A DNA stretch of 30,015 bases from positions 1 to 30,015 of IMG/VR virus record IMGVR_UViG_3300006754_007205; one strand, written 5' to 3'. The stretch comes from a virus. Within the stretch, counting starts at the first letter, position 1. Every line of letters begins with the position of its first letter. A program made the translations under genes and the position numbers. Below are positions 1-17,421 of this stretch, piece by piece. The notes under the pieces are model-generated. The model was not told where the DNA came from. It was given only the letters and a program-made list of their open reading frames with translations, and did not search any database.

Positions 1-329
1 CAGCGCTTGTAACGGCACTGGCGACATACATGAATATGGATCCTGATACCGCACAACGAGCAGTAGATGGATTAGATCCAGGGATAGTAGATCAATTCGA
101 AATTGGTGGTGATATCATGCCCGGAGGTGATACCGGTGAAATACCTAGCCATTCCCAATGGAACGATGCTGGTGTTGATACTACCCGTGCTCCAGGAATA
201 GACTCGCATGATGCTGCACTCGAACGAGGTAAGCAGTTTAAGCAACAACTACATCAGCAGCATTTACCTCATTCAAAGCCTATCCCCGGGGGAGGTAAGA
301 AGGGTATTACCCCGGGAGTTGATTTTTAA
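1..329 (+). CDS. Partial unknown protein, paralogue of the next gene (5' end off the window)
   Basis: The frame is open to the left edge (first complete codon at base 3), so the ATG at 30 is very probably internal. The visible part reads ALVTALATYMNMDPDTAQ followed by VDGLDP. The same hydrophobic segment and motif occur at residues 57-81 of the next gene, so this is the tail of a tandem paralogue. After the shared part the two diverge; this copy has a hydrophilic Gly/His/Gln-rich end and stops at 327-329, six bases before the next ATG. The hydrophobic stretch could be a membrane segment or a packed helix. No family is recognised. The neighbour's N-terminus suggests a virion-internal protein, but the N-terminus of this copy cannot be seen. 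Confidence 0.75.
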   Translation, partial: ALVTALATYMNMDPDTAQRAVDGLDPGIVDQFEIGGDIMPGGDTGEIPSHSQWNDAGVDTTRAPGIDSHDAALERGKQFKQQLHQQHLPHSKPIPGGGKKGITPGVDF

Positions 330-335: not shown

Positions 336-1055
336 ATGAACAAAGATGTACAATTAATTAATGAAGCATATGGTAATATGCCTCCGCAGGTACCACAACA
401 TCTCCTCGAAGAGGGGATGATGGATCAGCTTAATGTATGGGTAGTCAATCAAGCAATCCCATGGCTCAAGAAAAACAAATATTGGGTAGCCGGTGGTGCA
501 GCACTTGTAACAGCATTGGCAACGTATATGAATATGGATCCTGATACGGCACAGGGAGTAGTAGATGGATTAGATCCAGAGGTACTGGGTGGTGTTGAAA
601 CAGCGACAGGTGCAGAAATAAACCAACCTGACGTTGATCTCGATCAAAGCTTTGGTGCTCACGATTCTGGTAATCTTGGCGGTGCTGAGCAAGGAGCAGA
701 TGCAGTAGCTGGAGGTGGAGAACTAAGTTTACAGGATGCGATGCCTGACGGCTATATGGGAACTGATCCCAGCCACGGTGGAATTTACTATGGAGAAGAT
801 GAGAGTGGTAAATGGTTAGCGAAAAAAGTGTCCCCAAATGCAAATCCAGACCTCATGAAGGATGTTATTGAGCAGGCACAGTCCGTTCTGAGTATGAAGA
901 TTCAAGGTGCAGGTAATACGAGCGCTGGTCTTGGATTTGAGACTATCGATTTAGAAGGAGGCGCTAAATTAATTAAAGCTCATATTTCGAATGTGCAGCA
1001 TGCTCCTTCAGACATGTTGGATGGCCCTTCAATACTAGATAGAGGTAATCAATGA
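336..1055 (+). CDS. Unknown protein with putative capsid-targeting N-terminus and one hydrophobic segment
   Basis: 239 aa, not recognised as a known family. The N-terminus carries I8-N9-E10 followed by A11, and L24-E25-E26 followed by G27. Both fit the (I/L)-x-E cleavage consensus of the T4 prohead protease gp21, and the first sits at the same position as in T4 internal protein IPIII (MKTYQEFIAE then A). Residues 50-66 form a hydrophobic Ala/Gly-rich segment. The middle (about 75-130) is acidic and Gly-rich, and the end (about 150-225) looks folded. The LLEEGMMD motif recurs in the 489-aa protein at 6718-8187. The stop overlaps the next gene's start by 4 nt. An internal head protein is an inference from the N-terminus only. 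Confidence 0.8.
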   Translation: MNKDVQLINEAYGNMPPQVPQHLLEEGMMDQLNVWVVNQAIPWLKKNKYWVAGGAALVTALATYMNMDPDTAQGVVDGLDPEVLGGVETATGAEINQPDVDLDQSFGAHDSGNLGGAEQGADAVAGGGELSLQDAMPDGYMGTDPSHGGIYYGEDESGKWLAKKVSPNANPDLMKDVIEQAQSVLSMKIQGAGNTSAGLGFETIDLEGGAKLIKAHISNVQHAPSDMLDGPSILDRGNQ

Positions 1056-1705
1056 AATTCGATCTAATATATGAGCAAACAATGCATAGACTTCTTTTCG
1101 AACAAGAAGGCATTACTGCTATATATCCCGGCGGATTTAAGCCACCTCACAAGGGCCATTTCGAATTAGCAAAGGCATATGCTTCAGATCCCGCAATTAA
1201 AGAGGTAAAAATTATGCTAGGCCCTAAGCCGCGGCTCAGCGAAGACGGAACAGTTACTATTACCGAGGAAATGTCCAAGAAAGTATGGGAAGAGTACTAT
1301 ATTCCCAACCTTCCTGGCAATGTTATAGTAGAATCTGCACCAGATCCAGTACCTGTCAGGGCTGCTTACATATATGTCGACCTTCACACTACAGCTGGTG
1401 ATATAGTTACCTTGATGTCAAGCGTTAAAGACGCTAAAGACGCAAAAAGATCCAATGAATTTGCAGAAAAGCACAAAGAAGGCACTGGTATGTACCATAA
1501 ACCTGACGTTGATGTTGTTTATTACCCTAAAAACACTGTAGAATACTATGAAGATAGGACCGATAACCTTAATGGTGAATCGATTAGTGCATCAACAATG
1601 AGAAATGACATTGCTAGAAATGATCTAGACAATTTTAAGACTAATCTCCCCGATGAAGTTCAAGAACGCGCCGAAGAATTGCTTAACATCTTCTCAAATC
1701 CCTAA
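1052..1705 (+). CDS. Cytidylyltransferase-like nucleotidyltransferase with N-terminal extension
   Basis: 217 aa. A nucleotidyltransferase signature begins at residue 22: [15 protein letters not shown], with the HxGH motif at H33-K34-G35-H36. A late ISASTMR motif near residue 178 resembles the second (I-S-S-T-x-x-R type) nucleotide-binding motif. Members of this superfamily move a nucleotidyl group from CTP or ATP to a phosphorylated acceptor; the substrate cannot be told here. The first 20 residues are an extension not needed for the fold, with I6-Y7-E8 and L15-F16-E17, which look like prohead-protease sites. The start overlaps the upstream gene by 4 nt and is preceded by AGAGG. The last 23 nt overlap folE on the other strand. 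NMN adenylyltransferase-like activity is one possibility among several. Confidence 0.82.
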
Positions 1706-2327
1706 CGAAATCGTAGAATTCTTGTCGAGTTAGGTCAGTTTTATCCAGAAATGCACCAGACATACGTGCTGTCTTCATAGTTGAGTTGTGTTTTACACCT
1801 CTAACACATGCACACATATGATTTGCCTCAACTAATACAGCAACACCCTTATTGAGTAAGCATACTTCATCGATATGTTTATGAATCTGCATAGTTAAGT
1901 TCTCTTGTACTTGTGGTCTACGTGCAAACCACTCAACAATTCGGTTTAATTTGCTCAAACCAATCACTTTTCCCTCTTTACCTGGTATATATGCTACGTG
2001 AGCATGCCCAATAAATGGTAAATGATGATGTGAACAGAAAGAATGCATGGTAATATTACCTTGAAAAACCAATCCATCATACTTATCTACGTTATCAAAT
2101 GCAGTAATCCTGGGAGGCTCTGTAAAACACCCTTCAGCTAAGTCATTTACAAATGCTTTTGCGACTCTTCGTGGTGTATCTGAGCTGTTTGGATCATCTC
2201 GCCAGTTAAATCCGAGAGCTTCCATGTACTGGCCATAGTGAAAAGCGGCTTGCCTAATGATTTCTTCCTTTTCTTCTGCAGTTCGTGGTCTGTTTCCGTT
2301 AGCGTAAGGCAATTTATAATCACTCAT
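1683..2327 (-). CDS. folE: GTP cyclohydrolase I
   Basis: 214 aa, the usual length for FolE. It converts GTP to 7,8-dihydroneopterin triphosphate, the first step toward both folate and 7-deazaguanine (queuosine/preQ0) precursors. Zinc ligands are visible as C98 and H101 in [11 protein letters not shown] and C172 in [11 protein letters not shown]. The GHAHVAYIP and [14 protein letters not shown] blocks are also family hallmarks. Next to queD and queE it most likely feeds 6-carboxytetrahydropterin formation rather than folate. It is transcribed opposite to queD/queE, starts from its own sigma70-like promoter, and its 3' end overlaps the convergent nucleotidyltransferase gene by 23 nt. Confidence 0.95.
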
Positions 2328-2335
2328 GTACTTAA

Positions 2336-2363
2336 ATTATATAATAGTTTACAAAAAATTCAA
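2336..2363 (-). promoter_or_regulatory. Sigma70-like promoter for folE
   Basis: On the minus strand: TTGAAT (-35) at 2363-2358, a 16-nt spacer, then TATAAT (-10) at 2341-2336. The folE ATG lies 8 nt beyond the -10 box, so the transcript would start about 2 nt before the start codon. The -35 box overlaps the late-type motif of the divergent gene at 2379. Confidence 0.7.
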
Positions 2364-2369
2364 TAAATA
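2362..2369 (+). promoter_or_regulatory. Late-type promoter motif (AATAAATA) before 2379 gene
   Basis: AATAAATA ends 9 nt before the ATG at 2379. It is one mismatch from the T4 late consensus TATAAATA and is one of eight junctional copies in this window. Confidence 0.6.
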
Positions 2370-2378
2370 TTTGAAACA

Positions 2379-2729
2379 ATGTTTGGCTTTAATGATAATG
2401 TTAATGATATACTCTCAGGTTTAGGAATTCAACCTCAATCCTCATCATCAAATAATATATTTGACGAATTCAAACACTGGCTGGTACATTATGTTCAGGA
2501 ACATAACGAACTAGAGTCTAATCATCCTACAATCAAGCAAATACAGAACCTGAACTCGGTAGATGAGATCGAACAGCTCTTAGCTCATAATCATGAGTAT
2601 TGCGATGAGTGCTTTCTCAAGATGTATCGCAAGTTTGCATCAGGAGAACAATCTGGATGCGGCTGTGGCGGTGAAATGCAGCCACAAGTTGTAGAAGTTG
2701 AACCTGAAGCACAGCAAGGTGGTGGCTGA
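2379..2729 (+). CDS. Unknown small acidic protein with Cys pairs
   Basis: 116 aa, no family recognised. The N-terminal third is Asn/Ser-rich, and a helical middle part is followed by HNHEYCDECFLKMY (about residues 70-83). A GCGCGG cluster is near residue 95, then an acidic Gln/Gly tail ends in GGG. The CxxC pair, the His residues and the second Cys pair could bind a metal such as zinc; this is inferred from spacing only. It lies between folE and queD but has a late-type promoter motif of its own, so it need not belong to the deazaguanine pathway. Confidence 0.75.
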   Translation: MFGFNDNVNDILSGLGIQPQSSSSNNIFDEFKHWLVHYVQEHNELESNHPTIKQIQNLNSVDEIEQLLAHNHEYCDECFLKMYRKFASGEQSGCGCGGEMQPQVVEVEPEAQQGGG

Positions 2730-2740
2730 ATTTAATTTTC

Positions 2741-2768
2741 TTGATCTTCCGTGAGAAGGTTATATAAT
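2741..2768 (+). promoter_or_regulatory. Sigma70-like promoter for queD-queE
   Basis: TTGATC at 2741-2746, a 16-nt spacer, and TATAAT at 2763-2768. The GTG chosen as the queD start (2775) is 7 nt past the -10 box, exactly where transcription would begin, predicting a leaderless mRNA. Confidence 0.72.
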
Positions 2769-2774
2769 ACCTAC

Positions 2775-3335
2775 GTGCAATACATAACACGTAAGGGTAC
2801 TTTTGATTCTGGCCACAGAGTCATGAACGAGAGAATGAAATGTTTCAATCTTCATGGTCATACCTATCTATATGAGTTAACATTTAGATTCCAAGAGATG
2901 GAACATATTGGATATGCTCTAGACTTCAAAGAGATTAAAAGAGTTGGTTGTCAATGGATCGATGATCTATTAGATCACGGAATGATTCTCAATCCAGAAG
3001 ATGAAGTTGTTATCGATGCAACCGAAAAGACAGGAAGTAAACTTTGGTTGATGTCGTTAAATGGAGGTAAATATTGCAACCCATCAGTAGAAAATTTAGC
3101 ACGAGAGGTATTTTTAGCTCAGCAAGTTCTCTTTGAGAATTATCTGATGTTAAAAGTTGATCATTTGAGATTGTATGAAACGCCAAACTGCTATACAGAT
3201 TGTTATGAGAAATCAATTACTGAAATTGATAAGATAAATTTTTACGGTAACAGATATGAATCAATTAAAAAATATGCCAAAGAAAAAGGAGTTGTCGAAT
3301 ATGACGATAGAAAAACCGACGTTGTCGCTCTCTGA
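2775..3335 (+). CDS. queD: 6-carboxy-5,6,7,8-tetrahydropterin synthase (QueD/PTPS family)
   Basis: 186 aa from GTG 2775. QueD converts dihydroneopterin triphosphate to 6-carboxytetrahydropterin, the second step to preQ0. Expected residues are present: H14 in FDSGHR, C23 and the H27-x-H29 pair in KCFNLHGHTY (zinc ligands and catalytic Cys), and DHLRLYETPNCY near the end. Family members are often about 120-140 aa; this one has an internal insertion and a charged C-terminal extension. The frame is open upstream to GTG 2751, but that start lies inside the promoter, and the family begins close to the ITRKxTFDS block, so 2775 is preferred. It overlaps queE by 35 nt. Confidence 0.88.
   Translation: MQYITRKGTFDSGHRVMNERMKCFNLHGHTYLYELTFRFQEMEHIGYALDFKEIKRVGCQWIDDLLDHGMILNPEDEVVIDATEKTGSKLWLMSLNGGKYCNPSVENLAREVFLAQQVLFENYLMLKVDHLRLYETPNCYTDCYEKSITEIDKINFYGNRYESIKKYAKEKGVVEYDDRKTDVVAL
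3286..3291 (+). promoter_or_regulatory. Shine-Dalgarno deciding the queE start
   Basis: AAGGAG lies 9 nt before ATG 3301, inside the end of queD. It supports 3301 over the upstream in-frame ATG at 3256. It is one of the few strong ribosome-binding sites in the window and serves an internal cistron. Confidence 0.75.
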
Positions 3336-4089
3336 GAATTTTTACTCAGTACAATGTGAGGGTATAACAACCGGTTACCCGTCATATTTTATTCGACTTA
3401 AAGGTTGTAATTTAATGTGTGGTGGTAAAAATGGATCCTTGATGAAGGAAGGTAAAGCCACGTGGTGGTGTGATAGTGAGGCTGTTTGGCGCAAAGGTGA
3501 AAAAGCTGATATTGAAGTTTTAATTGATGACTGGATAAAAGAGGGCATTCTTGATTGGGTATTAAATGGTAGAGTTCATCTAGTATGGACCGGTGGTGAG
3601 CCTACTCTCTCCAAACACCAAAGAGATATTGTTAGTTGTTTAGACTATCTTTGCAAAAAATATGATGACATTTCATATAAATGCCTCAAGCTACCAATAT
3701 ACAATGAGATTGAAACAAACGGTACACAATATATAGAAGACGCTTTGTTCGGTGAATTGGATCAAATTAATTGTAGTGTCAAATTAGCTAACAGTGGTAT
3801 AGATTATTATAGCAGAGTCAATTTAGTCGCATTACATCGTATCATGAGTCATCACAATTACTGGTTCAAATTTGTTGTTAGCGAAGAAAAGGATTTGGAA
3901 GAGATCCGTGATACTTTTATTAAGCCTCTCAAAATACCACCAAGCAAAGTTCTTATGATGCCAGGATTGGATCATCAAGACAATTTTCACGAAAGAACTG
4001 AGTTTTGCTTACAAATGGCTAAGAAGTATGGTTATGTAGGAATGACAAGATTGCACATTTCTGCATGGAATCAGACCACAGGAGTATAA
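3301..4089 (+). CDS. queE: 7-carboxy-7-deazaguanine synthase, radical SAM (QueE)
   Basis: 262 aa. QueE rearranges 6-carboxytetrahydropterin to 7-carboxy-7-deazaguanine with SAM and a 4Fe-4S cluster. The start of the fold, SENFYSVQCEG, and RLKGCNLMC are typical. The cluster cysteines appear to be C36, C40 and C57 (in ATWWCDSE), i.e. C-x3-C-x16-C instead of the usual radical-SAM C-x3-C-x2-C. VWTGGEPTL is the SAM-binding GGE motif, and NEIETNGTQ follows. It is co-transcribed with queD; the TAA stop lies inside the late-type promoter of the next gene. The next enzyme, QueC, is not in the window. Confidence 0.9.
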   Translation: MTIEKPTLSLSENFYSVQCEGITTGYPSYFIRLKGCNLMCGGKNGSLMKEGKATWWCDSEAVWRKGEKADIEVLIDDWIKEGILDWVLNGRVHLVWTGGEPTLSKHQRDIVSCLDYLCKKYDDISYKCLKLPIYNEIETNGTQYIEDALFGELDQINCSVKLANSGIDYYSRVNLVALHRIMSHHNYWFKFVVSEEKDLEEIRDTFIKPLKIPPSKVLMMPGLDHQDNFHERTEFCLQMAKKYGYVGMTRLHISAWNQTTGV

Positions 4090-4092
4090 ATA
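4085..4092 (+). promoter_or_regulatory. Late-type promoter TATAAATA before 4099 gene
   Basis: Exact match to the T4 late promoter core TATAAATA. It contains the queE stop codon (4087-4089) and ends 6 nt before ATG 4099. Confidence 0.75.
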
Positions 4093-4098
4093 TTTCAA

Positions 4099-4398
4099 AT
4101 GGCTGACGGAGACTTCATAAATAGAAACATTTGTAAAAACGCCACTCAAACTGCTGTAGCTACAACCGCTGATCATACAGGTGCGCTAGCTGATATGAAA
4201 TGTTCTGAAGTCGTTATGAGTTGCACGGCAGCTACTATGATTTATGACGGAAATGCAAATTTTGAAGTGCCTGCTAATACAATTATGTCATTCAGAGGTC
4301 TTACTAACGCCAATCAATTAACTGCACATAATACTGCAGGTAGCGGTGAAGTGTATTACCGAGCACAGTATTACACTATGTCGCTCCAGAACGGTTAG
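4099..4398 (+). CDS. Unknown small protein, probably virion-associated
   Basis: 99 aa, rich in Ala, Thr and Asn, with no charged clusters and no membrane segment. The alternating pattern in SEVVMSCTAATMIYDGN and EVYYRAQYYTMSL suggests a small beta-sandwich, as seen in phage decoration or fibre proteins. It is driven by the only exact TATAAATA motif at a gene junction here, which supports late, structural expression. No specific family is recognised; the structural role is inferred from composition and promoter. Confidence 0.75.
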   Translation: MADGDFINRNICKNATQTAVATTADHTGALADMKCSEVVMSCTAATMIYDGNANFEVPANTIMSFRGLTNANQLTAHNTAGSGEVYYRAQYYTMSLQNG

Positions 4399-4410
4399 CC
4401 TATAACGTGT

Positions 4411-4427
4411 CCGAATAAATAATTCGG
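4411..4427 (+). other. Perfect inverted repeat enclosing a late promoter core
   Basis: CCGAAT, loop AAATA, ATTCGG: a perfect 6-bp stem directly abutting ATG 4428. It spans the late-type motif of the next gene. There is no U-tract after it, so it does not look like a classical terminator. Confidence 0.55.
4414..4421 (+). promoter_or_regulatory. Late-type promoter motif (AATAAATA) before 4428 gene
   Basis: AATAAATA ends 6 nt before ATG 4428, within the inverted repeat at 4411-4427. Confidence 0.6.
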
Positions 4428-4817
4428 ATGAGTGATATAATTTTCGACGATCCAAAGAACTGGCTTCTAGAACTTCTATATGATGCTAATAAAGCAGATT
4501 ATGAAACATATCGTGTATATACCTGTCTTGCAAGATATATAAATGATAACAGAGAATTCATTGGTATTACTGAAGAAATTGCTCCTGGTACTCTAAGATT
4601 CAAACCTCTTAATGATCTCGCTGATGATTGCTTATTCAGCGTAACATTCTTTTCTAGTCATATAAAGAAACGTCAACGTCGACGAGGGGCTCCTGGTGTT
4701 TCGTTCTATTCTAACACCGGTAAACATGCTTATACACAAATTGGTTACCCTGCAATTGCAAAACATTGGTCGTTCTGGGTCAATTACGTGAACAATCATA
4801 TAGATCTTAATAAATAA
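4428..4817 (+). CDS. Unknown protein, conserved-looking globular
   Basis: 129 aa. No family is assigned. It is soluble-looking and aromatic-rich, with a basic patch HIKKRQRRRGAPG near residues 79-91 and a C-terminal GYPAIAKHWSFWVNYVN segment with three tryptophans. It has its own late-type motif and lies between two other late-type genes, suggesting a structural or assembly role. The stop TAA (4815-4817) overlaps the late-type motif of the following gene. What it binds or does cannot be read from the sequence. Confidence 0.75.
   Translation: MSDIIFDDPKNWLLELLYDANKADYETYRVYTCLARYINDNREFIGITEEIAPGTLRFKPLNDLADDCLFSVTFFSSHIKKRQRRRGAPGVSFYSNTGKHAYTQIGYPAIAKHWSFWVNYVNNHIDLNK
4809..4816 (+). promoter_or_regulatory. 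Late-type promoter motif (AATAAATA) before 4824 gene
   Basis: AATAAATA ends 7 nt before ATG 4824 and overlaps the upstream stop codon. TAAGGA follows just before the ATG and could act as a short ribosome-binding site. Confidence 0.6.
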
Positions 4818-4823
4818 TTAAGG

Positions 4824-5528
4824 ATGAATTCTAATGATGATAAGATTTTTGAAAGTTATCAAAAATCACAACAGCTCGATGAATTTATAGACCCGCTTAC
4901 TTTAGGGGTAGCAGGCGCAGCCGTGGCAGGAGCTGGTGAGATAGGTAGTGGAGCTCATAACCGCGTTAAAGTTGCTGCTAGGAAGTTTTTATCGGGTCGA
5001 GGTGGGGCACTCTCTCAGTTAGTTGGAAAAGCTGGAGAGTATGTCGGCGGTGCACATTATTCAAAGTTTCAAGCTACACATGAAATTCAAGACTCTGTAA
5101 ATTACTTATGGAATAAAATTCAAGGCTTAATGCGTCTTCATCCAAAAGGTCTTACGGGTGATATGGATAAAAATTTCATAAAACAGCAGTCTGTAACAGA
5201 GGGTGGCCCAAAGATCAATATAGATAAATTGACAACTACAAAAGAGCTTGTTGATGGTCAGGTATATGCTGCAAATGATATTCGTGACAGGCTAATTCCA
5301 ATTACTGTTAATGAATTGTTCGAGACTGGTCAAACAGGTGCAGATGCTACCGTAACAAAAGAAAATTTTATAAATATCATGAAGACAAAAAATGCTAGCG
5401 CAAAAGCAGCTGTTATTAATGCGCTGGATGTAGCTGGTCATTTACCTCCAAAAGATGATAATGTCGTTGCGAGTGCGAAGGTCGAAACGCCATTGGGGGG
5501 TGCCGAACTTACAGCCACCAAATCATGA
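4824..5528 (+). CDS. Unknown protein with putative capsid-targeting N-terminus
   Basis: 234 aa, unrecognised. The N-terminus has I8-F9-E10 followed by S11, matching the (I/L)-x-E pattern at the same register as T4 IPIII. Residues 26-40 (PLTLGVAGAAVAGAG) are Gly/Ala-rich and weakly hydrophobic. The rest is mixed helical and soluble, with many Lys, Ala and Asp residues. It is the first gene of a four-gene unit (4824-8867) in which each gene overlaps the next by ATGA, so the four products are probably made together. A virion-internal role is inferred. Confidence 0.8.
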   Translation: MNSNDDKIFESYQKSQQLDEFIDPLTLGVAGAAVAGAGEIGSGAHNRVKVAARKFLSGRGGALSQLVGKAGEYVGGAHYSKFQATHEIQDSVNYLWNKIQGLMRLHPKGLTGDMDKNFIKQQSVTEGGPKINIDKLTTTKELVDGQVYAANDIRDRLIPITVNELFETGQTGADATVTKENFINIMKTKNASAKAAVINALDVAGHLPPKDDNVVASAKVETPLGGAELTATKS

Positions 5529-6721
5529 GTAACAAATTTACAGGTCAAAATTGGTTTGGTGTTGATCCTCACGCAGGTGAATATTTGTTTGGTGAAGCTA
5601 GCAAAAGACAGACAGCACTACGGAAGGCAGCAAAAGAACTCGGAATAACGTATAGTGGTAAAAAATTAGACGATTTAGAAGCCGAATTAGATGCAGAAGA
5701 TAAAGCGCGAGAAGATCAAGAAAAAGAAAGAATATCACAACAAAGCTATGACCGTATTTCGCAAAACGCGGCAGGAGAACAACCAGCCGAAAAGCCAGTC
5801 CCCGCGGCCACTGGTCAACCAGGTACGACTACTACAGGTAAAACAGCAAGTCCTGAACAAGCCGCAGCGATGGGATACGGTGGATCACCTACGAAGCCTG
5901 GAGCTCCAGCAGCAAAATCAGTACCAGTAGATGCTACAGAACCAGGACCACTAGCCGCACCAGGCGCAGGTGCACCACCAGATTTCGCCGAGACAACACC
6001 GTCAGCAACACCTCCTCCACCAGCAGCAACCGCAGCAACACCTCCTCCACCAGCAGCAACCGCAGCAACACCTCCTCCACCAGCAGTAACCGCAGCAACA
6101 CCTGCAGTTCCAGACGATCAACTACAACAGCAAGCAGTACAACTTGCTGAAAGTGATCCGAGTTTTATTGGTGAACTAGTTAAAAGTATAAACGATAAGG
6201 ATACAGTAGTTGAATTTATCAAAGCAGCTCATGCACGAGGTGATCGACCTGATCATTTGCGTGTATTAATCGATATGTGGAAAAACATGTCTATCCCTAT
6301 TAGATCAAAACGACCAGAGGATATTCAAGTTATGAATGCTGTACATGATGCTGACCCGCAACATAAGGAATGGGCTCAATGGATTCTTGATAATATGAGA
6401 GCAAAGCTAGACTTTGCAGATCTGGAACCATTGATAAGTGATCTAGGAATAACAGATACCAGTGGTGGCGACTGGACACAATTCCAGGGCGAAATTGATG
6501 GGATTGGTAACCGCGCGCAGGAAAAACAATTATTATTGCATATCTTAAACTCTCCACCTGCTTTAGAGAGCGTCATTATACCAAACGGACAGCAATTAAT
6601 TGAAGAACTAACAAAATTATATGCAGCACGGGATCTCCTTCTTGAAGCTGAAGTTGATCCTGATAGAGATCACTTAGACGAACAGGACTTTGTTTCACAG
6701 TACCCGGCAGGAAGACTATGA
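5525..6721 (+). CDS. Unknown protein with Pro/Ala repeat linker
   Basis: 398 aa in three parts. The N-terminal part (1-90) is charged and probably helical (SKRQTALRKAAKELGITYSG). A low-complexity Pro/Ala/Thr linker (about 90-200) includes a three-fold ten-residue repeat at residues 161-193. The C-terminal globular helical part (about 200-370) contains DHLRVLIDMWKNM and LLLHILNSPPALESV. Near the end LLLEAEVDPDRDHLDE contains a possible L-x-E site and a motif (PDRDHLD, 379-385) shared with the gene at 8184. Translation is coupled to both neighbours by ATGA overlaps. A two-domain, linker-joined structural protein seems likely; the family is unknown. Confidence 0.8.
   Translation: MSNKFTGQNWFGVDPHAGEYLFGEASKRQTALRKAAKELGITYSGKKLDDLEAELDAEDKAREDQEKERISQQSYDRISQNAAGEQPAEKPVPAATGQPGTTTTGKTASPEQAAAMGYGGSPTKPGAPAAKSVPVDATEPGPLAAPGAGAPPDFAETTPSATPPPPAATAATPPPPAATAATPPPPAVTAATPAVPDDQLQQQAVQLAESDPSFIGELVKSINDKDTVVEFIKAAHARGDRPDHLRVLIDMWKNMSIPIRSKRPEDIQVMNAVHDADPQHKEWAQWILDNMRAKLDFADLEPLISDLGITDTSGGDWTQFQGEIDGIGNRAQEKQLLLHILNSPPALESVIIPNGQQLIEELTKLYAARDLLLEAEVDPDRDHLDEQDFVSQYPAGRL
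6005..6103 (+). repeat. 30-bp tandem repeat, about 3.3 copies, in coding sequence
   Basis: Units begin at 6005, 6035 and 6065, with a partial fourth at 6095. The copies are nearly identical (one C/T difference in the third) and in frame. They encode ATPPPPAATA-type decapeptides in the linker of the 398-aa protein. Confidence 0.9.
6659..6681 (+). repeat. 23-nt exact repeat, copy 1
   Basis: Identical over 23 nt to 8541-8563 and read in the same frame in both genes, encoding PDRDHLD (plus Asp/Glu). The flanking sequence differs. Confidence 0.8.
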
Positions 6722-8187
6722 GCTATACAAGACAATTATTACAAGAAGATTGCTGGAACGGTTTAACCTCCGACCAGCAAAAATTCTTTATTCATGCAGA
6801 GCAAGAGCTCACACCTGCACTTACTAACCTAGCTAATGTTATTAATAAGCATTCCATGGAAGGTAACAATCAACTATTGATTGAAGCAGGCATCCTAACA
6901 ACTGAAGATAATAGATTGTTAGAAGAAGGTATGATGGATTCGCTTAAAGGGTTAGCTCGCGCGGGAGCAGAAAAATTTCGTAGGCCACCAAGTGGTGGAC
7001 ATATACCAGAAGCGTCAGTTAAGAAGTTAATCACCAATATTGTTGCACAGCACAACGGTACAGATGTTGTTGGTATAAAAAAAGAGCTAGGCAGTGCATG
7101 GAAAGATCTTAAAGATACAGATAAGTCTGAAATTCTTTCAGCTGCTGGTTGGGTTAATAATAAATTAAACGAGCTTGGTCAAGAAGCTCAAAAAATGGGC
7201 GTTATTCAGGACATCGACAATGCGGTTGATAACTGGCTACCTAAACTCAAACAAAAATTTCCTAAGCAAGCCGAAACTGCTGAGAAGATCGGTAATTGGG
7301 CAAAAGAAAATAAAGGAAAATCTGCGATTGCAATCGCTGTATTAGCCGCCGCTGTTAATTTCTCCGCTGGATTAGTTCCTGCGATTGCTGTTGGTATGCT
7401 GTTAAGGGCTGCATTAGGTCAAATGCAAAATCCTCACGAGAAACTTTCAAGTTCGCTAGGACAAGCCGCTAAGATAACTGCTGGTGGTCTAGCCGCCGCC
7501 GGAGCAATTGGAGCGGTAATGGATATAGGTCAAATTGCAGCTGATAAAGTAACAGCTATGGTTCACGGTACAAGTGAGGAAGCCGCCGGTCAAATAATCG
7601 GCGCAACGCCTGGTGAACTGGCTGCAGCAGGCCTTCGTGAAAAGGCAGCAATGATGAGAGATTTTGCTGAAAGAATGGGAATAGAGGATGTAAGTCAGAT
7701 ATCTGGTCAAATGCAAGGTGGTGTACCGGTTGAGATCAACGGCATGCCAGTACCTGAAGAGCTTTACTCTCCAGAACAATTACAAAATCTTCAAGCCGCG
7801 CAACAAGTAAGTGCTGCTATGAGCGGTGATGCAGGTGGTGCTGATGCTGGTGGTGCTGATACCGGTGGCGATAGATTCGGCCTCACAACCGACGCAGAAT
7901 TCGACACCATAACTAATACTCCAGTAGATAGCACTCAAAGTTTGATAGATCGATTAGAATATTTTGCTGATAATAGATTTGCTGGTAAGCCTGGACTAAA
8001 ATGGGACCTCACCGGTGGTTCTGTTACTATTGAAGCCGGTGATGCATCCAAGCTCTCCCAGGATTTAACTATTAAATTTTCTGATATGTCAATGGATGAG
8101 ATGAAAGGCCTTGAAGCTGCGCTTAAGAAAATAGGCATTGACGAGGTTAGAATATGGGACTCAATGGGAAGACACGCTAGACAATGA
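6718..8187 (+). CDS. Unknown large protein with putative protease sites and two hydrophobic regions
   Basis: 489 aa, unrecognised. Candidate (I/L)-x-E sites are L8-Q9-E10, L54-I55-E56 before A57, and L68-E69-E70 before G71. The last is inside the LLEEGMMD motif also found in the 239-aa protein at 336. Two hydrophobic Ala/Gly-rich stretches lie at about 203-232 and 251-270. A Gly/Ala/Asp repeat (DAGGADAGGADTGGD, about 371-385) leads to a C-terminal domain of about 85 residues that looks folded. The start follows CAGGAAG and overlaps the previous stop. The combination resembles a multi-site processed, possibly membrane-active head protein, but this is inference. Confidence 0.8.
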   Translation: MSYTRQLLQEDCWNGLTSDQQKFFIHAEQELTPALTNLANVINKHSMEGNNQLLIEAGILTTEDNRLLEEGMMDSLKGLARAGAEKFRRPPSGGHIPEASVKKLITNIVAQHNGTDVVGIKKELGSAWKDLKDTDKSEILSAAGWVNNKLNELGQEAQKMGVIQDIDNAVDNWLPKLKQKFPKQAETAEKIGNWAKENKGKSAIAIAVLAAAVNFSAGLVPAIAVGMLLRAALGQMQNPHEKLSSSLGQAAKITAGGLAAAGAIGAVMDIGQIAADKVTAMVHGTSEEAAGQIIGATPGELAAAGLREKAAMMRDFAERMGIEDVSQISGQMQGGVPVEINGMPVPEELYSPEQLQNLQAAQQVSAAMSGDAGGADAGGADTGGDRFGLTTDAEFDTITNTPVDSTQSLIDRLEYFADNRFAGKPGLKWDLTGGSVTIEAGDASKLSQDLTIKFSDMSMDEMKGLEAALKKIGIDEVRIWDSMGRHARQ

Positions 8188-8867
8188 AAAATGTAAACTT
8201 TAATACTGGCTGGTACATGGGCGAAGATGAAGTGATCGAAGAATTCGGTCCGATGGAGCCTATTGCTGAAAGCCCAGTAGCTGGTGGCGAAGATCCTTCT
8301 CCTGCACCTGCCCCGCCCGGTAACTTAATCAATGAATCAGACTTAGAGCAAGCATGGATTGCAGCAGGTAAGCCTACAGATGTTAAAGGTGTACTTGATG
8401 TATTCATGAAAGTAGGCCAAGAAAAGCTCGGTGATGATAAAATTGCACTACGTAAGTGGGAATATGCGGTTAATCAAGGCTTAAGATCTATCAGACCTGA
8501 TATTACAAAAGAGCCTCCTGTACCTGGTGAGGAAGAGCCACCTGATAGAGATCACTTAGACGATGATGATCCTATGGTAACATTAGGTGACAAGATTAGA
8601 GATCTGGGTCCAGAAGCTGTTGATGCAGTTGTTAAATATATGAGCGGGCCCGCCACCGGTGCACAAACTATGTCAGGATCAGAACACCATCGTGACGATC
8701 CGGAAATTATTGCTGCCATACAAGCAAGATATCCCGATGCCCCGGGCGGGGAAACCACAGAAAAGACAGTACCAGGATCAACAGACGAATCACACCACTC
8801 CGGTACAGAGCTGGGCAAGTTTGCATCTCTCCTTACAGAGCATCTTGCAAACACGAATAGAAGCTAA
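8184..8867 (+). CDS. Unknown acidic protein, last of the coupled head-like unit
   Basis: 227 aa, acidic, with Pro/Gly/Glu-rich stretches. Candidate prohead-protease sites are I18-E19-E20 and I27-A28-E29 before S30. The latter is an IAE site of the kind seen in T4 head proteins. A helical block (about 48-105: DLEQAWIAAGKPTDVKGVLD and following) may be globular. PDRDHLD at 120-126 is encoded by the 23-nt repeat shared with the gene at 5525. The C-terminus is disordered-looking, followed by a helix (LGKFASLLTEHLANTN). No family is recognised. It overlaps the preceding gene by ATGA. Confidence 0.78.
   Translation: MKNVNFNTGWYMGEDEVIEEFGPMEPIAESPVAGGEDPSPAPAPPGNLINESDLEQAWIAAGKPTDVKGVLDVFMKVGQEKLGDDKIALRKWEYAVNQGLRSIRPDITKEPPVPGEEEPPDRDHLDDDDPMVTLGDKIRDLGPEAVDAVVKYMSGPATGAQTMSGSEHHRDDPEIIAAIQARYPDAPGGETTEKTVPGSTDESHHSGTELGKFASLLTEHLANTNRS
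8541..8563 (+). repeat. 23-nt exact repeat, copy 2
   Basis: Same sequence and frame as 6659-6681, encoding PDRDHLD. Confidence 0.8.
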
Positions 8868-8873
8868 TAAATT
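8866..8873 (+). promoter_or_regulatory. Degenerate late-type motif (AATAAATT) before 8880 gene
   Basis: AATAAATT ends 6 nt before ATG 8880 and overlaps the upstream stop codon. It differs in the last base from the other junctional motifs, so it is a weaker call. Confidence 0.35.
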
Positions 8874-8879
8874 ACTGTA

Positions 8880-9599
8880 ATGCGCATTTGTATTAGTGGT
8901 ACTAGCAGTCAAGGTAAATCTACATTTGTTAAAGATTTCATAAAGGAATGGCCTTCTTACACAACTCCGACATATTCCTATCGTGAGCTTATTGGTGAAT
9001 CTCACAGTAAGAAAACCAATAAAGACATGCAATTGAAAATTTTAGACAGCATGGTTGATGAGGTCATCAAACACGGTGAAGATGATAAAATAGTGTATGA
9101 TCGAGGGCCTTTAGACAATCTCGCATATTCACTGTGGGCTAACAGTAAAGGTATTGTTGATGACGAAACTATCTCAAAAAGTCTACCCCTCTTAAGAGAA
9201 TCGTTAAAATTTATTGATATTATATTTTACATACCTATAACTGAAGCTGCAAAAGTAGACTATGATACCGAAGAATTTCAAAAATATAAAGCAGCAGGTT
9301 TCACTGACGAGCAATTTCGTGAAGAAGTGGATAATATTTTCAAAGTATTAAAATACGATTGGGATAGCCCGGAATCAAAATTTTGTGAAACTCGTGATAA
9401 GCCACCTATAATTGAAGTATTCGGGCAACCTCATGAGCGTATACATATGGTTAAGTGGTATTTAGATGCTGATGGGGACCTTATTGATAATGTAGGTGTA
9501 TTTACTGAAAATGATATACAGGAGATGGAGCAGCTTAAAGCTAGCTTTGGAGTTCAAGATAAAACTAGTGAAGCTTACCGAAATCCAACCGGGACATAA
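8880..9599 (+). CDS. P-loop kinase/ATPase (AAA_28 or nucleoside-kinase-like)
   Basis: 239 aa. The Walker A motif GTSSQGKST is at residues 7-15. A DRGPLD motif at 74-79, followed by NLAYSLW, resembles the substrate-binding DR(S/G) region of deoxynucleoside and thymidylate-type kinases and of NadR/AAA_28 proteins. A later segment (about 150-175) with basic and acidic residues could be the lid. It could phosphorylate a nucleoside or nucleotide, fitting the phage's nucleotide metabolism genes, but the substrate cannot be read. The stop TAA overlaps the late-type motif for the next gene. Confidence 0.8.
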   Translation: MRICISGTSSQGKSTFVKDFIKEWPSYTTPTYSYRELIGESHSKKTNKDMQLKILDSMVDEVIKHGEDDKIVYDRGPLDNLAYSLWANSKGIVDDETISKSLPLLRESLKFIDIIFYIPITEAAKVDYDTEEFQKYKAAGFTDEQFREEVDNIFKVLKYDWDSPESKFCETRDKPPIIEVFGQPHERIHMVKWYLDADGDLIDNVGVFTENDIQEMEQLKASFGVQDKTSEAYRNPTGT

Positions 9600-9605
9600 T
9601 AAATA
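9598..9605 (+). promoter_or_regulatory. Late-type promoter motif (AATAAATA) before 9611 gene
   Basis: AATAAATA ends 5 nt before GTG 9611. It overlaps the stop codon of the kinase gene (9597-9599). Confidence 0.6.
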
Positions 9606-9610
9606 ATTAT

Positions 9611-10267
9611 GTGAAACCTGACAAGCTTGAAAATATATTAGAATTTTATAGACCGAGGCCGATTCGCACATCTAAGCGAACATTATATCCTCGCGGCTTT
9701 ACTCTGAGCTCAGAATTTTTAGATTCGTTTCACCTAGAATTTGATAGAATGGTTCACGAAGGATGTGATCCCAAAAAGCTTGTCAATCATTTTAGCAAGG
9801 CTCTTCGCTTTCATACTGACGATGAGAGAAGCCAAGCAGTAATGGAAGCTAAAAAGGGATGGCAGAAAAAGGACAAAGAAAAAGTTACCCGGCGTCGAGA
9901 GGATAAAGAAGCAGCTCAAGAACCTGTACAGAATACAAAGAAGTTAGATGAGCTTGCTCAATCTTGCGGTACAGATAAAAAAGGCAAAAGAGTATGCAGA
10001 GCAAGTCATTCACGTGGAGGCCCTGCGGCAGGTACAAAAGTAGATTCTGCAGGCAGACCAATTAAAGAAGAGGGTCAATCAGACGAAGTCGCGGCTAGAG
10101 AAATGGAGAACATGCACCAAAGGGAGCAAAATCCGTTCCCTAATCCTCCACGAAAGAAACGAAAAGGTCTTCCACCATTACCACCAGAAGCTAATGCCTC
10201 TAAAGAGCAGCAAGACAATGTAGCTAAAGGAGTTGTAAAGCCTTATGTTAAAATAAAAAGACGCTAA
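9611..10267 (+). CDS. Unknown basic, largely disordered protein
   Basis: 218 aa, GTG start. The only ATG nearby (9609) runs straight into a stop. The N-terminal 70 residues look folded (EFYRPRPIRTSKRTLYPRGF and following). The rest is Lys/Arg/Glu-rich with a helical charged stretch (WQKKDKEKVTRRREDKEAA) and a Pro/Lys-rich tail. A CGTDKKGKRVC pair and an SHSRGGP segment are present. I9-L10-E11 near the start fits the (I/L)-x-E pattern. A basic, late-expressed protein could be DNA-associated in the head; this is inference. The stop directly abuts the phoH stop on the opposite strand. Confidence 0.75.
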   Translation: MKPDKLENILEFYRPRPIRTSKRTLYPRGFTLSSEFLDSFHLEFDRMVHEGCDPKKLVNHFSKALRFHTDDERSQAVMEAKKGWQKKDKEKVTRRREDKEAAQEPVQNTKKLDELAQSCGTDKKGKRVCRASHSRGGPAAGTKVDSAGRPIKEEGQSDEVAAREMENMHQREQNPFPNPPRKKRKGLPPLPPEANASKEQQDNVAKGVVKPYVKIKRR

Positions 10268-11045: not shown

Positions 11046-11073
11046 TTGAATATCCAGGGACATATCATATAAT
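11046..11073 (+). promoter_or_regulatory. Sigma70-like promoter for the glycan cassette
   Basis: TTGAAT at 11046-11051, a 16-nt spacer, TATAAT at 11068-11073, and ATG 11082 after 8 nt. The predicted leader is about 2 nt. Confidence 0.72.
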
Positions 11074-11081
11074 TGTATTAT

Positions 11082-11909
11082 ATGGGAAAAGTTGGACTTG
11101 GTGTTATCACGTGTAATAGAGAAGAATTTTATAAGCAATGCTGTGAAAGTATACCACTGTATTCTGTTGATCATATTGTGACTGTAAACGACGGTGACCC
11201 ATATAAATACCAGCATTCCGGAATACATGTATATCAAAACGATACTAACTTAGGTGTTGGTAAATCTAAGAATAAAGCTATGCAACATTTACTTAACTGT
11301 GACTGTGAGCATATATTTTTAATAGAAGATGATATTATTATTAAGAACAGTTTAGTATTTGAAAAGTATATTGATACAGCTTGCCAGACAGGATTATGGC
11401 ATTTGATGTTTGGTTATCATGGACCAGCTAACAAAAATGAACATAAATTTCCTAATCCCCGATTAGTTGTTGAGTATAGTGATGAGTGTAAAGTAGCTTT
11501 CAATCTACATTGTGTTGGTGCATTTTGTTATTATCATAGAGGCGTATTGACTAATATTGGACGGATGGATGAACAATATAAAAATGCTTGGGAACACGTA
11601 GATCACTCATTTCAAATTGCCAAGAAGGGGTTACTACCAGCCTACTGGTGGTGGCCAGATGTTGCCAACTCATGTGATTATCTAGATGAATTAGCTTGTA
11701 GTGAAGAGAGCTCAACAATTAGATGGGAAGATGCCGAGAATAAGGTACCTAAAAAAGACTGGCAAGACAACATACAAACTGGAATGGACCATTTTGTATC
11801 CAAACACAGTTTTACTCCTGTACAGGTACCAGATACCCCTGTTGAATTAATTCAAGAAAAACTTAAATTTATTAGAGAGACTTACAGCAGAAATGAAGCA
11901 AAACTTTAG
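11082..11909 (+). CDS. Glycosyltransferase, GT2/GT-A-like
   Basis: 275 aa from ATG 11082. An upstream TTG at 11073 overlaps the -10 box and is rejected. The N-terminus GLGVITCNREEFYKQCCESI and TVNDG is a nucleotide-sugar-binding GT-A start. NLGVGKSKNKAMQHLL and FLIEDDIII give the D-x-D-like metal-binding motif (EDD). A later CVGAFCYYHRGVLTNIGRMDE and AWEHVDHSFQIAKKG block looks like the acceptor/GalT-C region. It probably transfers a sugar from a nucleotide donor to a glycan; donor and acceptor are unknown. It is the first gene of the sugar cassette and overlaps the next by 17 nt. Confidence 0.82.
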   Translation: MGKVGLGVITCNREEFYKQCCESIPLYSVDHIVTVNDGDPYKYQHSGIHVYQNDTNLGVGKSKNKAMQHLLNCDCEHIFLIEDDIIIKNSLVFEKYIDTACQTGLWHLMFGYHGPANKNEHKFPNPRLVVEYSDECKVAFNLHCVGAFCYYHRGVLTNIGRMDEQYKNAWEHVDHSFQIAKKGLLPAYWWWPDVANSCDYLDELACSEESSTIRWEDAENKVPKKDWQDNIQTGMDHFVSKHSFTPVQVPDTPVELIQEKLKFIRETYSRNEAKL

Positions 11910-12762
11910 TGGTATAACGCTAATAACGTTCGTTAGATTAGACAACAAAGAACGCATAGAAAATCTACAATCGATGGTAGGTTTTTACAATAAGTATTGC
12001 GAGAATTATACACATATAATAGTAGAAGAGGATGTAGAGCCAAAAGTATTAGACAGTTTAGATCTACCCTCACATGTCACATATATCTATAATAAGAGTG
12101 ACACTGAATGGAACAAATGTAAAGGTTATAATACGGCATTCAAGATAGCCACGACTAATACGTTACTTCTTAATGATGTAGATATCATAGTTCATCCAGA
12201 TCAAATTCTACAAACTGCATCAAATTTATCTGATAATGATAACGCAGCGTTAATGTACCCGTATAACGGATTGTTCCTGTGTGTAGAAAAAAACCTTAAA
12301 GAATTATTTTGTAAAGATTTGGATTATGATGTTTTATCATCCAACTTTCCTGAACCACTCAATGATTATAATGGAGTAAGCAAAGGTCAGCGTCAGCGAT
12401 ACAGAAAATATATAAATGAATTTTTTAATAATGGAAATGTAATGGTAGGACATGTTAGTAGCATGGGTGGATGCGTTATGGCCAGAAGAGACAATTTATT
12501 AAAATTAAATGGATATAATCCGAATTTTATCGGATGGGGATACGAAGATGACGAAATGCCGGTAAGAGCGAATAAGTTAGGATATGAAGTTAGTAGGTTA
12601 GGCTTTACAAAAGCCCCAGCATGGCATCTACATCATTATGATGGTACAGGGTCACAGAAAGAAACTCAACCATTTTACGAACACAATAGGCAAGAGGTAT
12701 CCAAGGTGGAGCATATGGCTGAGGAGGAATTAAACACATATAAGGATACATGGATTTTATAA
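11893..12762 (+). CDS. Glycosyltransferase with galactosyltransferase-type C-terminal domain
   Basis: 289 aa. The N-terminal GT-A-like region is GITLITFVRLDNKERIENLQ, with KGYNTAFKIATTNTLLLNDVDIIVHP supplying the DVD metal motif. The C-terminal block GGCVMARRDNLLKLNGYNPN, then FIGWGYEDDEM, is typical of the Glyco_transf_7C (beta-4-galactosyltransferase-like) domain, followed by HLHHYDG. It likely extends the same glycan as the preceding transferase. It ends 1 nt before the start of the GT11 gene. Confidence 0.82.
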   Translation: MKQNFSGITLITFVRLDNKERIENLQSMVGFYNKYCENYTHIIVEEDVEPKVLDSLDLPSHVTYIYNKSDTEWNKCKGYNTAFKIATTNTLLLNDVDIIVHPDQILQTASNLSDNDNAALMYPYNGLFLCVEKNLKELFCKDLDYDVLSSNFPEPLNDYNGVSKGQRQRYRKYINEFFNNGNVMVGHVSSMGGCVMARRDNLLKLNGYNPNFIGWGYEDDEMPVRANKLGYEVSRLGFTKAPAWHLHHYDGTGSQKETQPFYEHNRQEVSKVEHMAEEELNTYKDTWIL

Positions 12763-12763
12763 T

Positions 12764-13594
12764 ATGATAGCAGCGAGATTAAAAGGGGGTCTAGGTAATC
12801 AACTATTTCAATTATCTACAGCTTTTGCAGCTGCAAAAGCCAACAACGACGAATTTGTAATTGATTATGACATTAAGCATCACAGCGGTCAAGGTCATAA
12901 ACATATAAAATATAAAGACAATTTATATGAGAATTTGCCTGAGAAGTCAATAAAAGGTGATGATCTTCAAATTTACAACGAACCTGCATTTTGTTATTCC
13001 CCCATACCCAAATATACAGGTAATATCATAATTGATGGCTATTTTCAATCTGAAAAATATTTTATCAATTATAGAGATGATGTAATTAAAATGTTTACTT
13101 TTCCAGACGACATTAAAGATGGAGCTAGAAAGAAAATTGATAAAATAAAAAGCCACTTTAATAGAGAGCAAACTGTTTGTATTCACGTTAGACGAGGTGA
13201 ATACTTAAAGTTGCAACATATTCATATCGTACAGCCTAAGGAATATTATCTAAATGCAATGGAGAAGTTTGATAAATCTAAGACAGTGTTTATTGTCATA
13301 TCTGATGATATGGATTGGTGTACTGTAAATTTGAATTACTATAAAACTGCATTTTGTAACACAGGGTATGATTATGATACCGAGCCAATATCAACAGATT
13401 TGTGTGAATTATTTGATTTACATCTAGCGAGTTTATGTGATCATAATATTATACCTAATAGTTCGTTTGGCTGGTGGGGTGCTTGGTTGAACGAGAATAA
13501 AGATAAAAAAGTAATCGCACCTTCAGTTTGGTTCGGTCCTGGTGGGCCACAAGATTATCATGATATGTATTGTGACGGGTGGGAGAAAATGTAG
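12764..13594 (+). CDS. GT11-type alpha-1,2-fucosyltransferase-like protein
   Basis: 276 aa. GGLGNQLFQ at residues 8-16, HVRRGEY at 141-147 (the GDP-fucose-binding HxRRGDY motif, with E for D), and SSFGWWGAWL near 235 are the three hallmarks of glycosyltransferase family 11. Family members transfer L-fucose, or a similar L-sugar, from its GDP donor to galactose. In this cassette it would use the product of the GDP-mannose dehydratase/epimerase genes downstream. The D-to-E change in the donor motif is noted; some GT11 proteins vary there. Confidence 0.9.
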   Translation: MIAARLKGGLGNQLFQLSTAFAAAKANNDEFVIDYDIKHHSGQGHKHIKYKDNLYENLPEKSIKGDDLQIYNEPAFCYSPIPKYTGNIIIDGYFQSEKYFINYRDDVIKMFTFPDDIKDGARKKIDKIKSHFNREQTVCIHVRRGEYLKLQHIHIVQPKEYYLNAMEKFDKSKTVFIVISDDMDWCTVNLNYYKTAFCNTGYDYDTEPISTDLCELFDLHLASLCDHNIIPNSSFGWWGAWLNENKDKKVIAPSVWFGPGGPQDYHDMYCDGWEKM

Positions 13595-17384: not shown

Positions 17385-17393
17385 TGTATGTTC

Positions 17394-17421
17394 TTGACTT
17401 TTCGTAAATTGATGTTATAAT
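17394..17421 (+). promoter_or_regulatory. Sigma70-like promoter for gme
   Basis: TTGACT at 17394-17399, a 16-nt spacer, and TATAAT at 17416-17421, in the only real intergenic gap of the sugar cassette. ATG 17432 follows 10 nt later. This is the best match to the bacterial consensus in the window. Confidence 0.8.

What the first reader, a model, noticed from the sequence alone, without database searches (positions are those of the whole stretch)
336..10267. A set of neighbouring proteins with T4 capsid-targeting-like N-termini
Seen: (I/L)-x-E ends at residue 8-11 in five proteins (starts 336, 1052, 4824, 6718, 9611). In three of them it ends at residue 10 exactly, as in T4 IPIII. Extra IAE or LEE sites occur at 336 (L24-E26), 6718 (L54-E56, L68-E70) and 8184 (I27-E29). 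Known: the T4 prohead protease gp21 cuts after (I/L)-x-E, and short N-terminal capsid-targeting sequences send internal proteins into the prohead. Inference: this block encodes a set of packaged, processed proteins that may be delivered with the DNA.
Basis: partly seen in the sequence, partly recalled or inferred. Interest (0 to 1): 0.75.

Follow-up and report, generated by a model that had tools for sequence, protein, structure and literature searches.

The report
Head-packaging tags on phage enzymes
A T4-like phage fragment carries a run of genes whose proteins begin with short removable tags like those phage T4 uses to load proteins into its head, which suggests that enzymes (one NAD-type, and in the same phage one RNA-ligase-like) travel inside the virus particle and enter the host with the DNA.

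Summary
In detail: (I/L)-x-E ends at residue 8-11 in five of 14 proteins of the block, against 0.6 expected from shuffled N-termini (p = 0.0006). The rest of the window shows 2 of 26. An overlapping contig of the same phage extends the series upstream.

Protein 1052 is a HIGH-motif nucleotidyltransferase with NMNAT-like fold. Its conserved site is E17, not E8. In relatives this enzyme carries a T4-type tag (MNELTKFLVE, MKTFKQFVTE) or starts directly at the enzyme domain. A neighbouring RNA-ligase-like protein shows the same pattern: a tag ending in phi-x-E, then GGxGGHM, or a plain M-GG start. When the two enzymes are fused, phi-x-E sits at the junction in 19 of 19 non-redundant cases.

Published virion proteomes of two cultured T4-like phages (S-CREM2, S-SCSM1) contain such nucleotidyltransferases; both start with a canonical T4-type tag. 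In S-CREM2, 5 of the 6 proteins matching the T4 tag spacing were detected in virions.

For 336, 4824, 6718 and 9611 the evidence is weaker. FolE, QueD, QueE and the kinase in the block are not part of the set. Processing and delivery were not shown for this phage.

The parts
336..1055 (+). Protein of 239 aa with tandem sites LINE10|A and LLEE26|G; positional counterpart in relative G002 (L099:9602-10507) starts MRDKDSQLIFE|AYLLTE|G
   Evidence: N-terminal 40 residues align above all shuffles with the G002 counterpart (score 42, shuffle max 37) while the remaining sequence does not (35, shuffle max 51)
1052..1705 (+). HIGH-motif nucleotidyltransferase (NMNAT-like fold) with N-terminal tag
   Evidence: H33-x-G-H36 and S179/R184 invariant; AlphaFold pLDDT 91; Foldseek best match archaeal NMNAT 4yp7, E 2e-5, TM 0.53; PHROG cytidyltransferase 1.4e-9
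1052..1102 (+). Predicted propeptide of 1052: [17 protein letters not shown]17|QEG; also an unconserved site at E8
   Evidence: E17 kept as VLFE|R in G045 and G046 and aligned with MKTFKQFVTE|A in G004; model: helix 3-16 of low confidence, first strand at 21
4824..5528 (+). Protein of 234 aa, IFE10|S and LDE20|F; a hydrophobic Gly/Ala stretch follows
   Evidence: Orthologues: IME12|G in G046, KLTE11|V in G002, but INQE in G045
5525..6721 (+). Pro/Ala-rich protein of 398 aa in the same cassette, no standard site in the first 30 residues; membership uncertain
   Evidence: cassette 4824-8867 is absent between orthologues of 4428 and 8880 in G004 and G028
6718..8187 (+). Protein of 489 aa, LLQE10|D and LLEE70|G; strongly hydrophobic segment near 202-220
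   Evidence: no orthologue with a comparable N-terminus found; 45% identity over 78 aa to a tape-measure-like protein in G034/L002
8184..8867 (+). Protein of 227 aa with VIEE20|F and PIAE29|S; membership uncertain
   Evidence: the cassette of G045 holds a 428-aa protein starting MSTEFGKFIKLLQE|AEPT
9611..10267 (+). Basic protein (pI 9.8) with conserved tag ILE11|FYRP
   Evidence: (I/V)LE|(F/G)Y(R/K)P in window, G002, G004, G028 and G045; pI
1..329 (+). 3' remnant of a second, tandem copy of the 336-type gene (C-terminal ORF 30-329)
   Evidence: window 1-86 aligns without gaps to 499-584 inside gene 336; overlapping contig L003 has gene C there instead

Best explanation
The N-terminal (I/L)-x-E segments are T4-type capsid-targeting propeptides. 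The segment binds the prohead core and draws its protein into the forming head. The phage's gp21-type (Peptidase S77) protease then cuts after Glu in phi-x-E, often at two successive sites, and releases the mature protein, which stays in the head with the DNA and probably enters the host with it. Cargo of this phage with good evidence: the NMNAT-like nucleotidyltransferase 1052 and, on the overlapping contig, an RNA-ligase-like enzyme and a short Lys-rich copy of the capsid protein's N-terminal arm. Cargo with moderate evidence: 9611 and 336. Candidates: 4824, 6718 and, less likely, 5525 and 8184. Shown here: the motif, its enrichment, its conservation, its modular presence or absence, and its position at domain junctions. 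Reported by others: virion presence of related enzymes in two cultured phages. Inferred: cleavage, targeting and injection in this phage.
For: Enrichment 5/14 vs 0.59 expected. Upstream genes of the same phage continue the series: MNLFEKYFNKVLNE|T, MSKVNDVLQKYVANSGIILE|Q, MINFRNYMLLME|GG. phi-x-E is kept in orthologues whose surroundings differ: LNE / INE for gene A, ILE / LYE for gene B, LLME / LLNE / LLQE for gene C, LFE for 1052, ILE / VLE for 9611. Nucleotidyltransferase family: 31 distinct long-start homologues all have phi-x-E, 28 have two sites, most as M-x-x-L-x-x-[FY]-[LI]-x-E10, the T4 IPIII spacing; 9 start directly at the domain. Gene C: 30 of 31 tagged homologues have phi-x-E directly before GG; four relatives start M-GG. 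In a non-redundant set, 19/19 fused and 21/23 N-terminal forms have phi-x-E|GG, with P1 = E and P3 = I/L/V while P5-P12 vary. Gene A aligns its Glu14 with the predicted maturation Glu60 of the Gp23 capsid protein. Peptidase S77 in 22 of 34 related records. S-CREM2 virion proteome: 5 of 6 proteins with T4 tag spacing were detected by MS, p = 0.003, including cytidylyltransferase gp154 MKNFSSFLTE|A (PMC10665884). S-SCSM1 NMNAT MKSFLQFLKE|A also detected (PMC9602691). T4 mutagenesis: residues 4 and 7 target, 8 and 10 are for processing (PMC9026906).
Against: 336, 4824, 6718 and 9611 lack the hydrophobic residue 6 positions before Glu that matters in T4 IPIII, and 4824 and 9611 also lack the one 3 before. 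No protease gene on this 30 kb fragment or on its closest relatives' fragments. Tagless enzymes also occur in phages that have the protease, so the tag is optional and the protease alone does not predict it. The single-site test in S-CREM2 virion proteins without the spacing rule is weak (5/28 vs 13/167, p = 0.09), and the spacing rule was written after I had seen those N-termini. The S-CREM2 authors warn that virion enzymes may be co-purified contaminants.
Confidence: 0.77

Rival explanations
1. The sites are real protease sites, but the proteins of the cassette (336, 4824, 6718) are prohead core or tail/membrane components that are cut up or stay structural; only the enzymes are delivered cargo.
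For: T4 core proteins gp22, gp67 and gp68 are cut at the same motif and mostly lost (PMC9026906, PMC5694885). 6718 shares a 78-aa stretch with a tape-measure-like protein and has a strong hydrophobic segment. 6718 and 336 both have LLEE|GMMD.
Against: These genes lie next to enzymes with tags, not next to the portal/protease/scaffold genes; the 4824-8867 cassette is absent in G004 and G028, which is unusual for a core component.
Confidence: 0.25
2. phi-x-E at these N-termini is kept for another reason, for example as a docking peptide that holds the nucleotidyltransferase and the ligase together, or as part of the ligase fold.
For: Glu before GGxGGHM is nearly invariant even inside fused proteins, as a structural residue would be.
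Against: Relatives that start M-GG lack the Glu. The segment is predicted as unstructured (residues 1-17 below pLDDT 50). Five unrelated protein families share the motif, and one of them aligns it with the capsid protein maturation site.
Confidence: 0.1
3. Chance: short hydrophobic-Glu triplets are common near N-termini and the block was picked after the fact.
For: The rest of the window also has two such proteins (20099, 20894) and T4 has 33 in 255. Fisher test block against rest is only 0.02-0.10.
Against: Shuffle test p = 0.0006; conservation over divergent orthologues and large families; virion proteome agreement.
Confidence: 0.05

Closest known systems
Phage T4 capsid targeting sequence of internal proteins IPI-IPIII and Alt (MKTYQEFIAE|A), cut by gp21
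   Same: 10-20 residue N-terminal segment ending in (I/L)-x-E; in relatives of 1052 and gene C the same spacing of hydrophobic residues 4, 7, 8 and Glu10; fast-evolving, unrelated bodies behind a similar tag; gp21-type protease in the lineage
   Different: Cargo here includes enzymes (NMNAT-like and RNA-ligase-like) rather than small basic proteins; two successive sites are common; several window tags lack the residue-4 hydrophobic
Virion-associated cytidylyltransferase/NMNAT of T4-like cyanophages (S-CREM2 gp154, S-SCSM1 QFG06348)
   Same: HIGH-motif nucleotidyltransferase, MS-detected in virions (PMC10665884, PMC9602691), N-terminus MKNFSSFLTE|A or MKSFLQFLKE|A
   Different: Divergent family; 1052 has a 17-residue tag with another sequence; a tag is not mentioned in the passages of those papers that were read
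Microcystis phage Mel-JY01 WWT39297 (nucleotidyltransferase fused to the gene C domain)
   Same: Both enzymes of this phage in one chain, N-terminal double site LSE11/FSE19 and IIAE|GGLGGHM at the junction; gene lies about 8 kb from an annotated prohead protease
   Different: Fused in Mel-JY01, separate genes here; no virion data found
Propeptides of giant phages SPN3US and phiKZ
   Same: Ejection proteins enter the head with N-terminal propeptides cut after Glu, sometimes at several sites (PMC5694885)
   Different: Propeptides mostly over 100 residues and another cleavage motif

Membership tests
T4-type capsid targeting sequence | N-terminal segment of about 10-20 residues ending in (I/L)-x-E | tested here: met
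   336, 1052, 4824, 6718, 9611; 1234 and 3021 on L003
T4-type capsid targeting sequence | Hydrophobic residues at positions 4 and 7 (6 and 3 before Glu), shown to target in T4 | tested here: inconclusive
   Met by relatives of 1052 and gene C and roughly by 1052 counted from E17 (M11, L14); position -6 not met by 336, 4824, 6718, 9611
T4-type capsid targeting sequence | gp21-type protease (Peptidase S77) in the same phage | tested here: inconclusive
   Absent from the 30 kb fragment; present in 22 of 34 related records
T4-type capsid targeting sequence | Removal of the segment in the virion | not testable with these tools
   Needs N-terminal mass spectrometry
T4-type capsid targeting sequence | Tagged protein present in the virion | not testable with these tools
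   No data for this phage; homologous enzymes detected in S-CREM2 and S-SCSM1 virions
T4 internal proteins IPI-IPIII (as homologues) | Small basic protein with sequence similarity to an IP family | tested here: not met
   No PHROG or Pfam match above the cut-off; predicted pI 4.2-6.5 for 336, 4824 and 6718, only 9611 and L003:1234 are basic
HIGH-superfamily nucleotidyltransferase (NMNAT/cytidylyltransferase) | H-x-G-H motif, ISxxxxR motif and Rossmann-type fold | tested here: met
   [11 protein letters not shown] and ISASTMR, invariant columns H33, G35, H36, S179, R184; fold match to NMNAT/PPAT; Pfam PF01467 below its cut-off
HIGH-superfamily nucleotidyltransferase (NMNAT/cytidylyltransferase) | NMN as substrate | not testable with these tools
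   Needs enzyme assay
ATP-dependent RNA ligase (gene C, L003:3021-4232) | Motif I K-x-D-G, motif IV E-G, motif V K | tested here: met
   K53, D55, G56, N58, E157, E366, G367, K387 invariant in 26 sequences
ATP-dependent RNA ligase (gene C, L003:3021-4232) | Ligase fold | tested here: inconclusive
   VIA-align: the 24 best chains are all RNA, tRNA or DNA ligases, best T4 Rnl1 Z 8.2, rmsd 4.8 over 195 residues; Foldseek E only 0.13

The most novel reading that the evidence does not exclude
Many T4-like phages load ready-made repair enzymes, an NMNAT-like nucleotidyltransferase and an RNA ligase, into the head through a T4-type tag, often as one polyprotein that the head protease separates at phi-x-E|GG. 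They inject them so that host attacks on tRNA or NAD are undone before the first phage gene is read.
Probability: 0.3. Interest if true: 0.82.

Novelty: new variant of a known kind. Interest (0 to 1): 0.66.

Why it matters
T4's capsid targeting sequence has been treated mostly as a feature of T4's own internal proteins and as a tool. The present evidence makes it a predictive code in environmental T4-like phages. It explains why enzymes such as cytidylyltransferase, SAM hydrolase and kinases turn up in cyanophage virion proteomes, which the authors could not separate from contamination. It also predicts further cargo from sequence alone. The tagged/tagless and fused relatives give ready-made test pairs. 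If the enzymes are delivered, phages would bring RNA and NAD repair into the cell at the moment of infection.

Tried and rejected
Direct homologues of 336, 4824, 5525, 6718 and 8184 in PHROGs and Pfam: none above the cut-off. Homologues of gene C in cultured phages by tblastn with three queries: none; it was found only through the fused Mel-JY01 protein. The idea that the tag occurs only where the S77 protease is present: rejected, tagless forms occur in records with the protease. A strict T4 4-7-8-10 rule applied to the window: none of the five listed proteins matches; the only match is an unrelated gene on L003. Sequence search of solved structures with genes C and E: nothing useful. A match of gene A to L137 was first taken for a capsid protein; Pfam shows a DUF5661-like protein, so only the Gp23 of L097 and L078 is used.
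Full report
What the window is. The window is a 30,015-base virus record from IMG/VR, all that is held of this phage. Its portal gene at 22477-24294 matches T4-like portals (34% to cyanophage gp20). Most of the named proteins have no family match. Contig L003 (9,193 bases, identical over gene 1052) overlaps the window and adds upstream genes of the same or a nearly identical phage.

The observation. All five listed sites and the extra ones are present. Five of 14 block proteins carry (I/L)-x-E ending at residue 8-11, where shuffled N-termini give 0.59 (p = 0.0006). With the L003 genes it is 7 of 19 at 8-14 against 1.36 (0 of 5000 shuffles). The rest of the window has 2 of 26. Whole-genome calibration with a simple gene caller: T4 33 of 255 against 22 expected, Flavobacterium phage immuto 37 against 17, a 248 kb relative 48 against 28. 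So a single site is a weak predictor on its own, and conservation has to decide.

The block extends upstream. L003 carries, in order, gene A MNLFEKYFNKVLNE|T (Lys-rich), gene B MSKVNDVLQKYVANSGIILE|Q (then Pro-rich), gene C MINFRNYMLLME|GGAGGHM, then 336 and 1052. Related contigs G045, G046, G002, G004 and G028 have the same order as far as they reach. Their orthologues keep the site while the rest of the tag changes: gene A SINE|Q, gene B VLYE|A or ILYE|Q, gene C SLLNE|GG or CLLQE|GG, 1052 NVLFE|R or QFVTE|A, 9611 VLE|GY(R/K)P. The tag of 336 is the only part that aligns with its G002 counterpart. FolE, QueD, QueE, 4099, 4428 and kinase 8880 have no such tag, and the cassette 4824-8867 is missing in G004 and G028 between conserved neighbours.

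Gene A points to the protease. Gene A aligns with the N-terminal arm of the Gp23 capsid protein of relatives (PF07068 1e-91). Its Glu14 falls on capsid Glu60 in LKE|Q or INE|A, the position expected for the gp23 maturation cut. The relatives have Peptidase S77 (22 of 34 records), and in them the protease and scaffold proteins also start with phi-x-E (MLLKLITQTPITE|G, MSQDISTILKE|A).

Two enzyme families as a natural experiment. For the 1052 family, 31 distinct long-start homologues have phi-x-E before the enzyme domain, 28 of them twice ([32 protein letters not shown]), while 9 start at the domain ([15 protein letters not shown]). One of the 31, L288, is probably a misjudged start. For gene C, 30 of 31 tagged homologues end the tag in phi-x-E exactly before GG (MITFKQFLLE|GGVAGHM), while four relatives start M-GGAAGHM. 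When both enzymes are fused, phi-x-E stands at the junction: 19 of 19 in a set reduced at 80% identity, with Glu at P1 and Leu/Ile/Val at P3 while P5-P12 vary. The fused cultured example is Mel-JY01 WWT39297 with IIAE|GGLGGHM, about 8 kb from an annotated prohead protease. A site that is kept whether it ends a tag or joins two domains, and whose downstream residue is the start of tagless forms, is best explained as a cleavage site.

Structure. 1052 is modelled with confidence 91. A low-confidence helix 3-16 precedes the first strand at 21, so the cut after E17 falls in the linker. Foldseek finds NMNAT and PPAT. Gene C (confidence 85, residues 1-17 unstructured) carries ligase motifs K53-x-D-G-x-N, E366-G and K387. 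Its best structural neighbours are all ligases, T4 Rnl1 first with Z 8.2, although Foldseek alone is not significant.

Outside evidence on virions. T4 mutagenesis assigned targeting to residues 4 and 7 and processing to 8 and 10 of the tag (PMC9026906). I applied this spacing to the 219 proteins of S-CREM2, whose virion proteome is published (PMC10665884). Six proteins match and five were detected in virions: SAM hydrolase MKDFDSFLEE, gp13 MKDLHSFLTE, kinase MKRFDAFLTE, gp136 MQTFSMFFSE and cytidylyltransferase gp154 MKNFSSFLTE (p = 0.003). I had seen these N-termini before fixing the pattern, so the p-value is not blind. S-SCSM1 NMNAT, also detected in virions (PMC9602691), starts MKSFLQFLKE|A, and seven further cyanophage homologues that I sampled carry the same spacing. 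The exceptions are Melnitz (MKKFSEIIE|A, one residue shorter) and the jumbo phage RaK2 (no tag). The passages of these papers that I read do not mention a targeting sequence, and a full-text search for capsid targeting with Synechococcus found only the SPN3US paper. The S-CREM2 authors caution that the enzymes might be contaminants; a shared T4-type tag argues against that.

Limits. No protease, virion or cleavage data exist for this phage. The window proteins 336, 4824, 6718 and 9611 do not follow the full T4 spacing. Tagless enzymes occur in phages with the protease, so packaging of these enzymes would be optional. Injection into the host is inferred from T4.

Verdict. The finding is a real and fairly well-supported example of T4-type capsid targeting outside T4's own internal proteins, carried by enzymes. 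It is a new variant of a known kind. The tagged/tagless pairs, the polyprotein junctions and the link to published virion proteomes make it directly testable.

Noticed in passing
window 1-329: Remnant of a second tandem copy of gene 336; the overlapping contig L003 has gene C directly upstream of 336 instead, so copy number of this gene differs between close strains (or one assembly is wrong).
   Followed up: partly
L003:1234-1572, L314:9424-9654, L316:7062-7292, L102:11942-12178, L127:10269-10514: Small proteins that look like the Gp23 capsid protein's N-terminal arm around the maturation site (E|...SGDNYAPGDARxPKIL...IRRTFPE) with Lys-rich tracts inserted; possible capsid-arm mimic that binds DNA.
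   Followed up: partly
L235-L308, L317:10299-12218: Nucleotidyltransferase and RNA-ligase-like domains fused in one chain with phi-x-E|GG at the junction; looks like a head-processed polyprotein.
   Followed up: yes
L146:19173-21896 (Flavobacterium phage immuto gp088): 907-aa protein with a polymerase-beta-like domain, a nucleotidyltransferase preceded by TLAE|A, and HExxH-type stretches; possibly another head-processed polyprotein. The same genome has many tags of the form MENFDLKKFLVE|NKLTTNSKILKE|N.
   Followed up: partly
S-CREM2 gp12 (OR473000.1 7704-10313): Cas9/Csn1-annotated nuclease detected in virions carries RFASFMAE|A (Glu25), a T4-like tag spacing further from the start.
   Followed up: no
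window 1683-4089: FolE, QueD-like and QueE-like genes in the middle of the block suggest 7-deazaguanine DNA modification; no QueC or DpdA seen in the fragment.
   Followed up: no
window 11073-18448: Cluster of glycosyltransferases, a glycerol-3-phosphate cytidylyltransferase-like gene (13595) and nucleotide-sugar epimerases/dehydratases.
   Followed up: no
window 6718-8187 and L002:8276-10261: Shared stretch (INGMPVPEELY, 45% over 78 aa) between protein 6718 and a tape-measure-like protein; both have Gly/Ala-rich hydrophobic segments, which might point to a membrane-acting ejected protein.
   Followed up: partly
window about 5934-6101 (inside 5525-6721): Repeated PPPPAATAAT units in protein 5525.
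   Followed up: no
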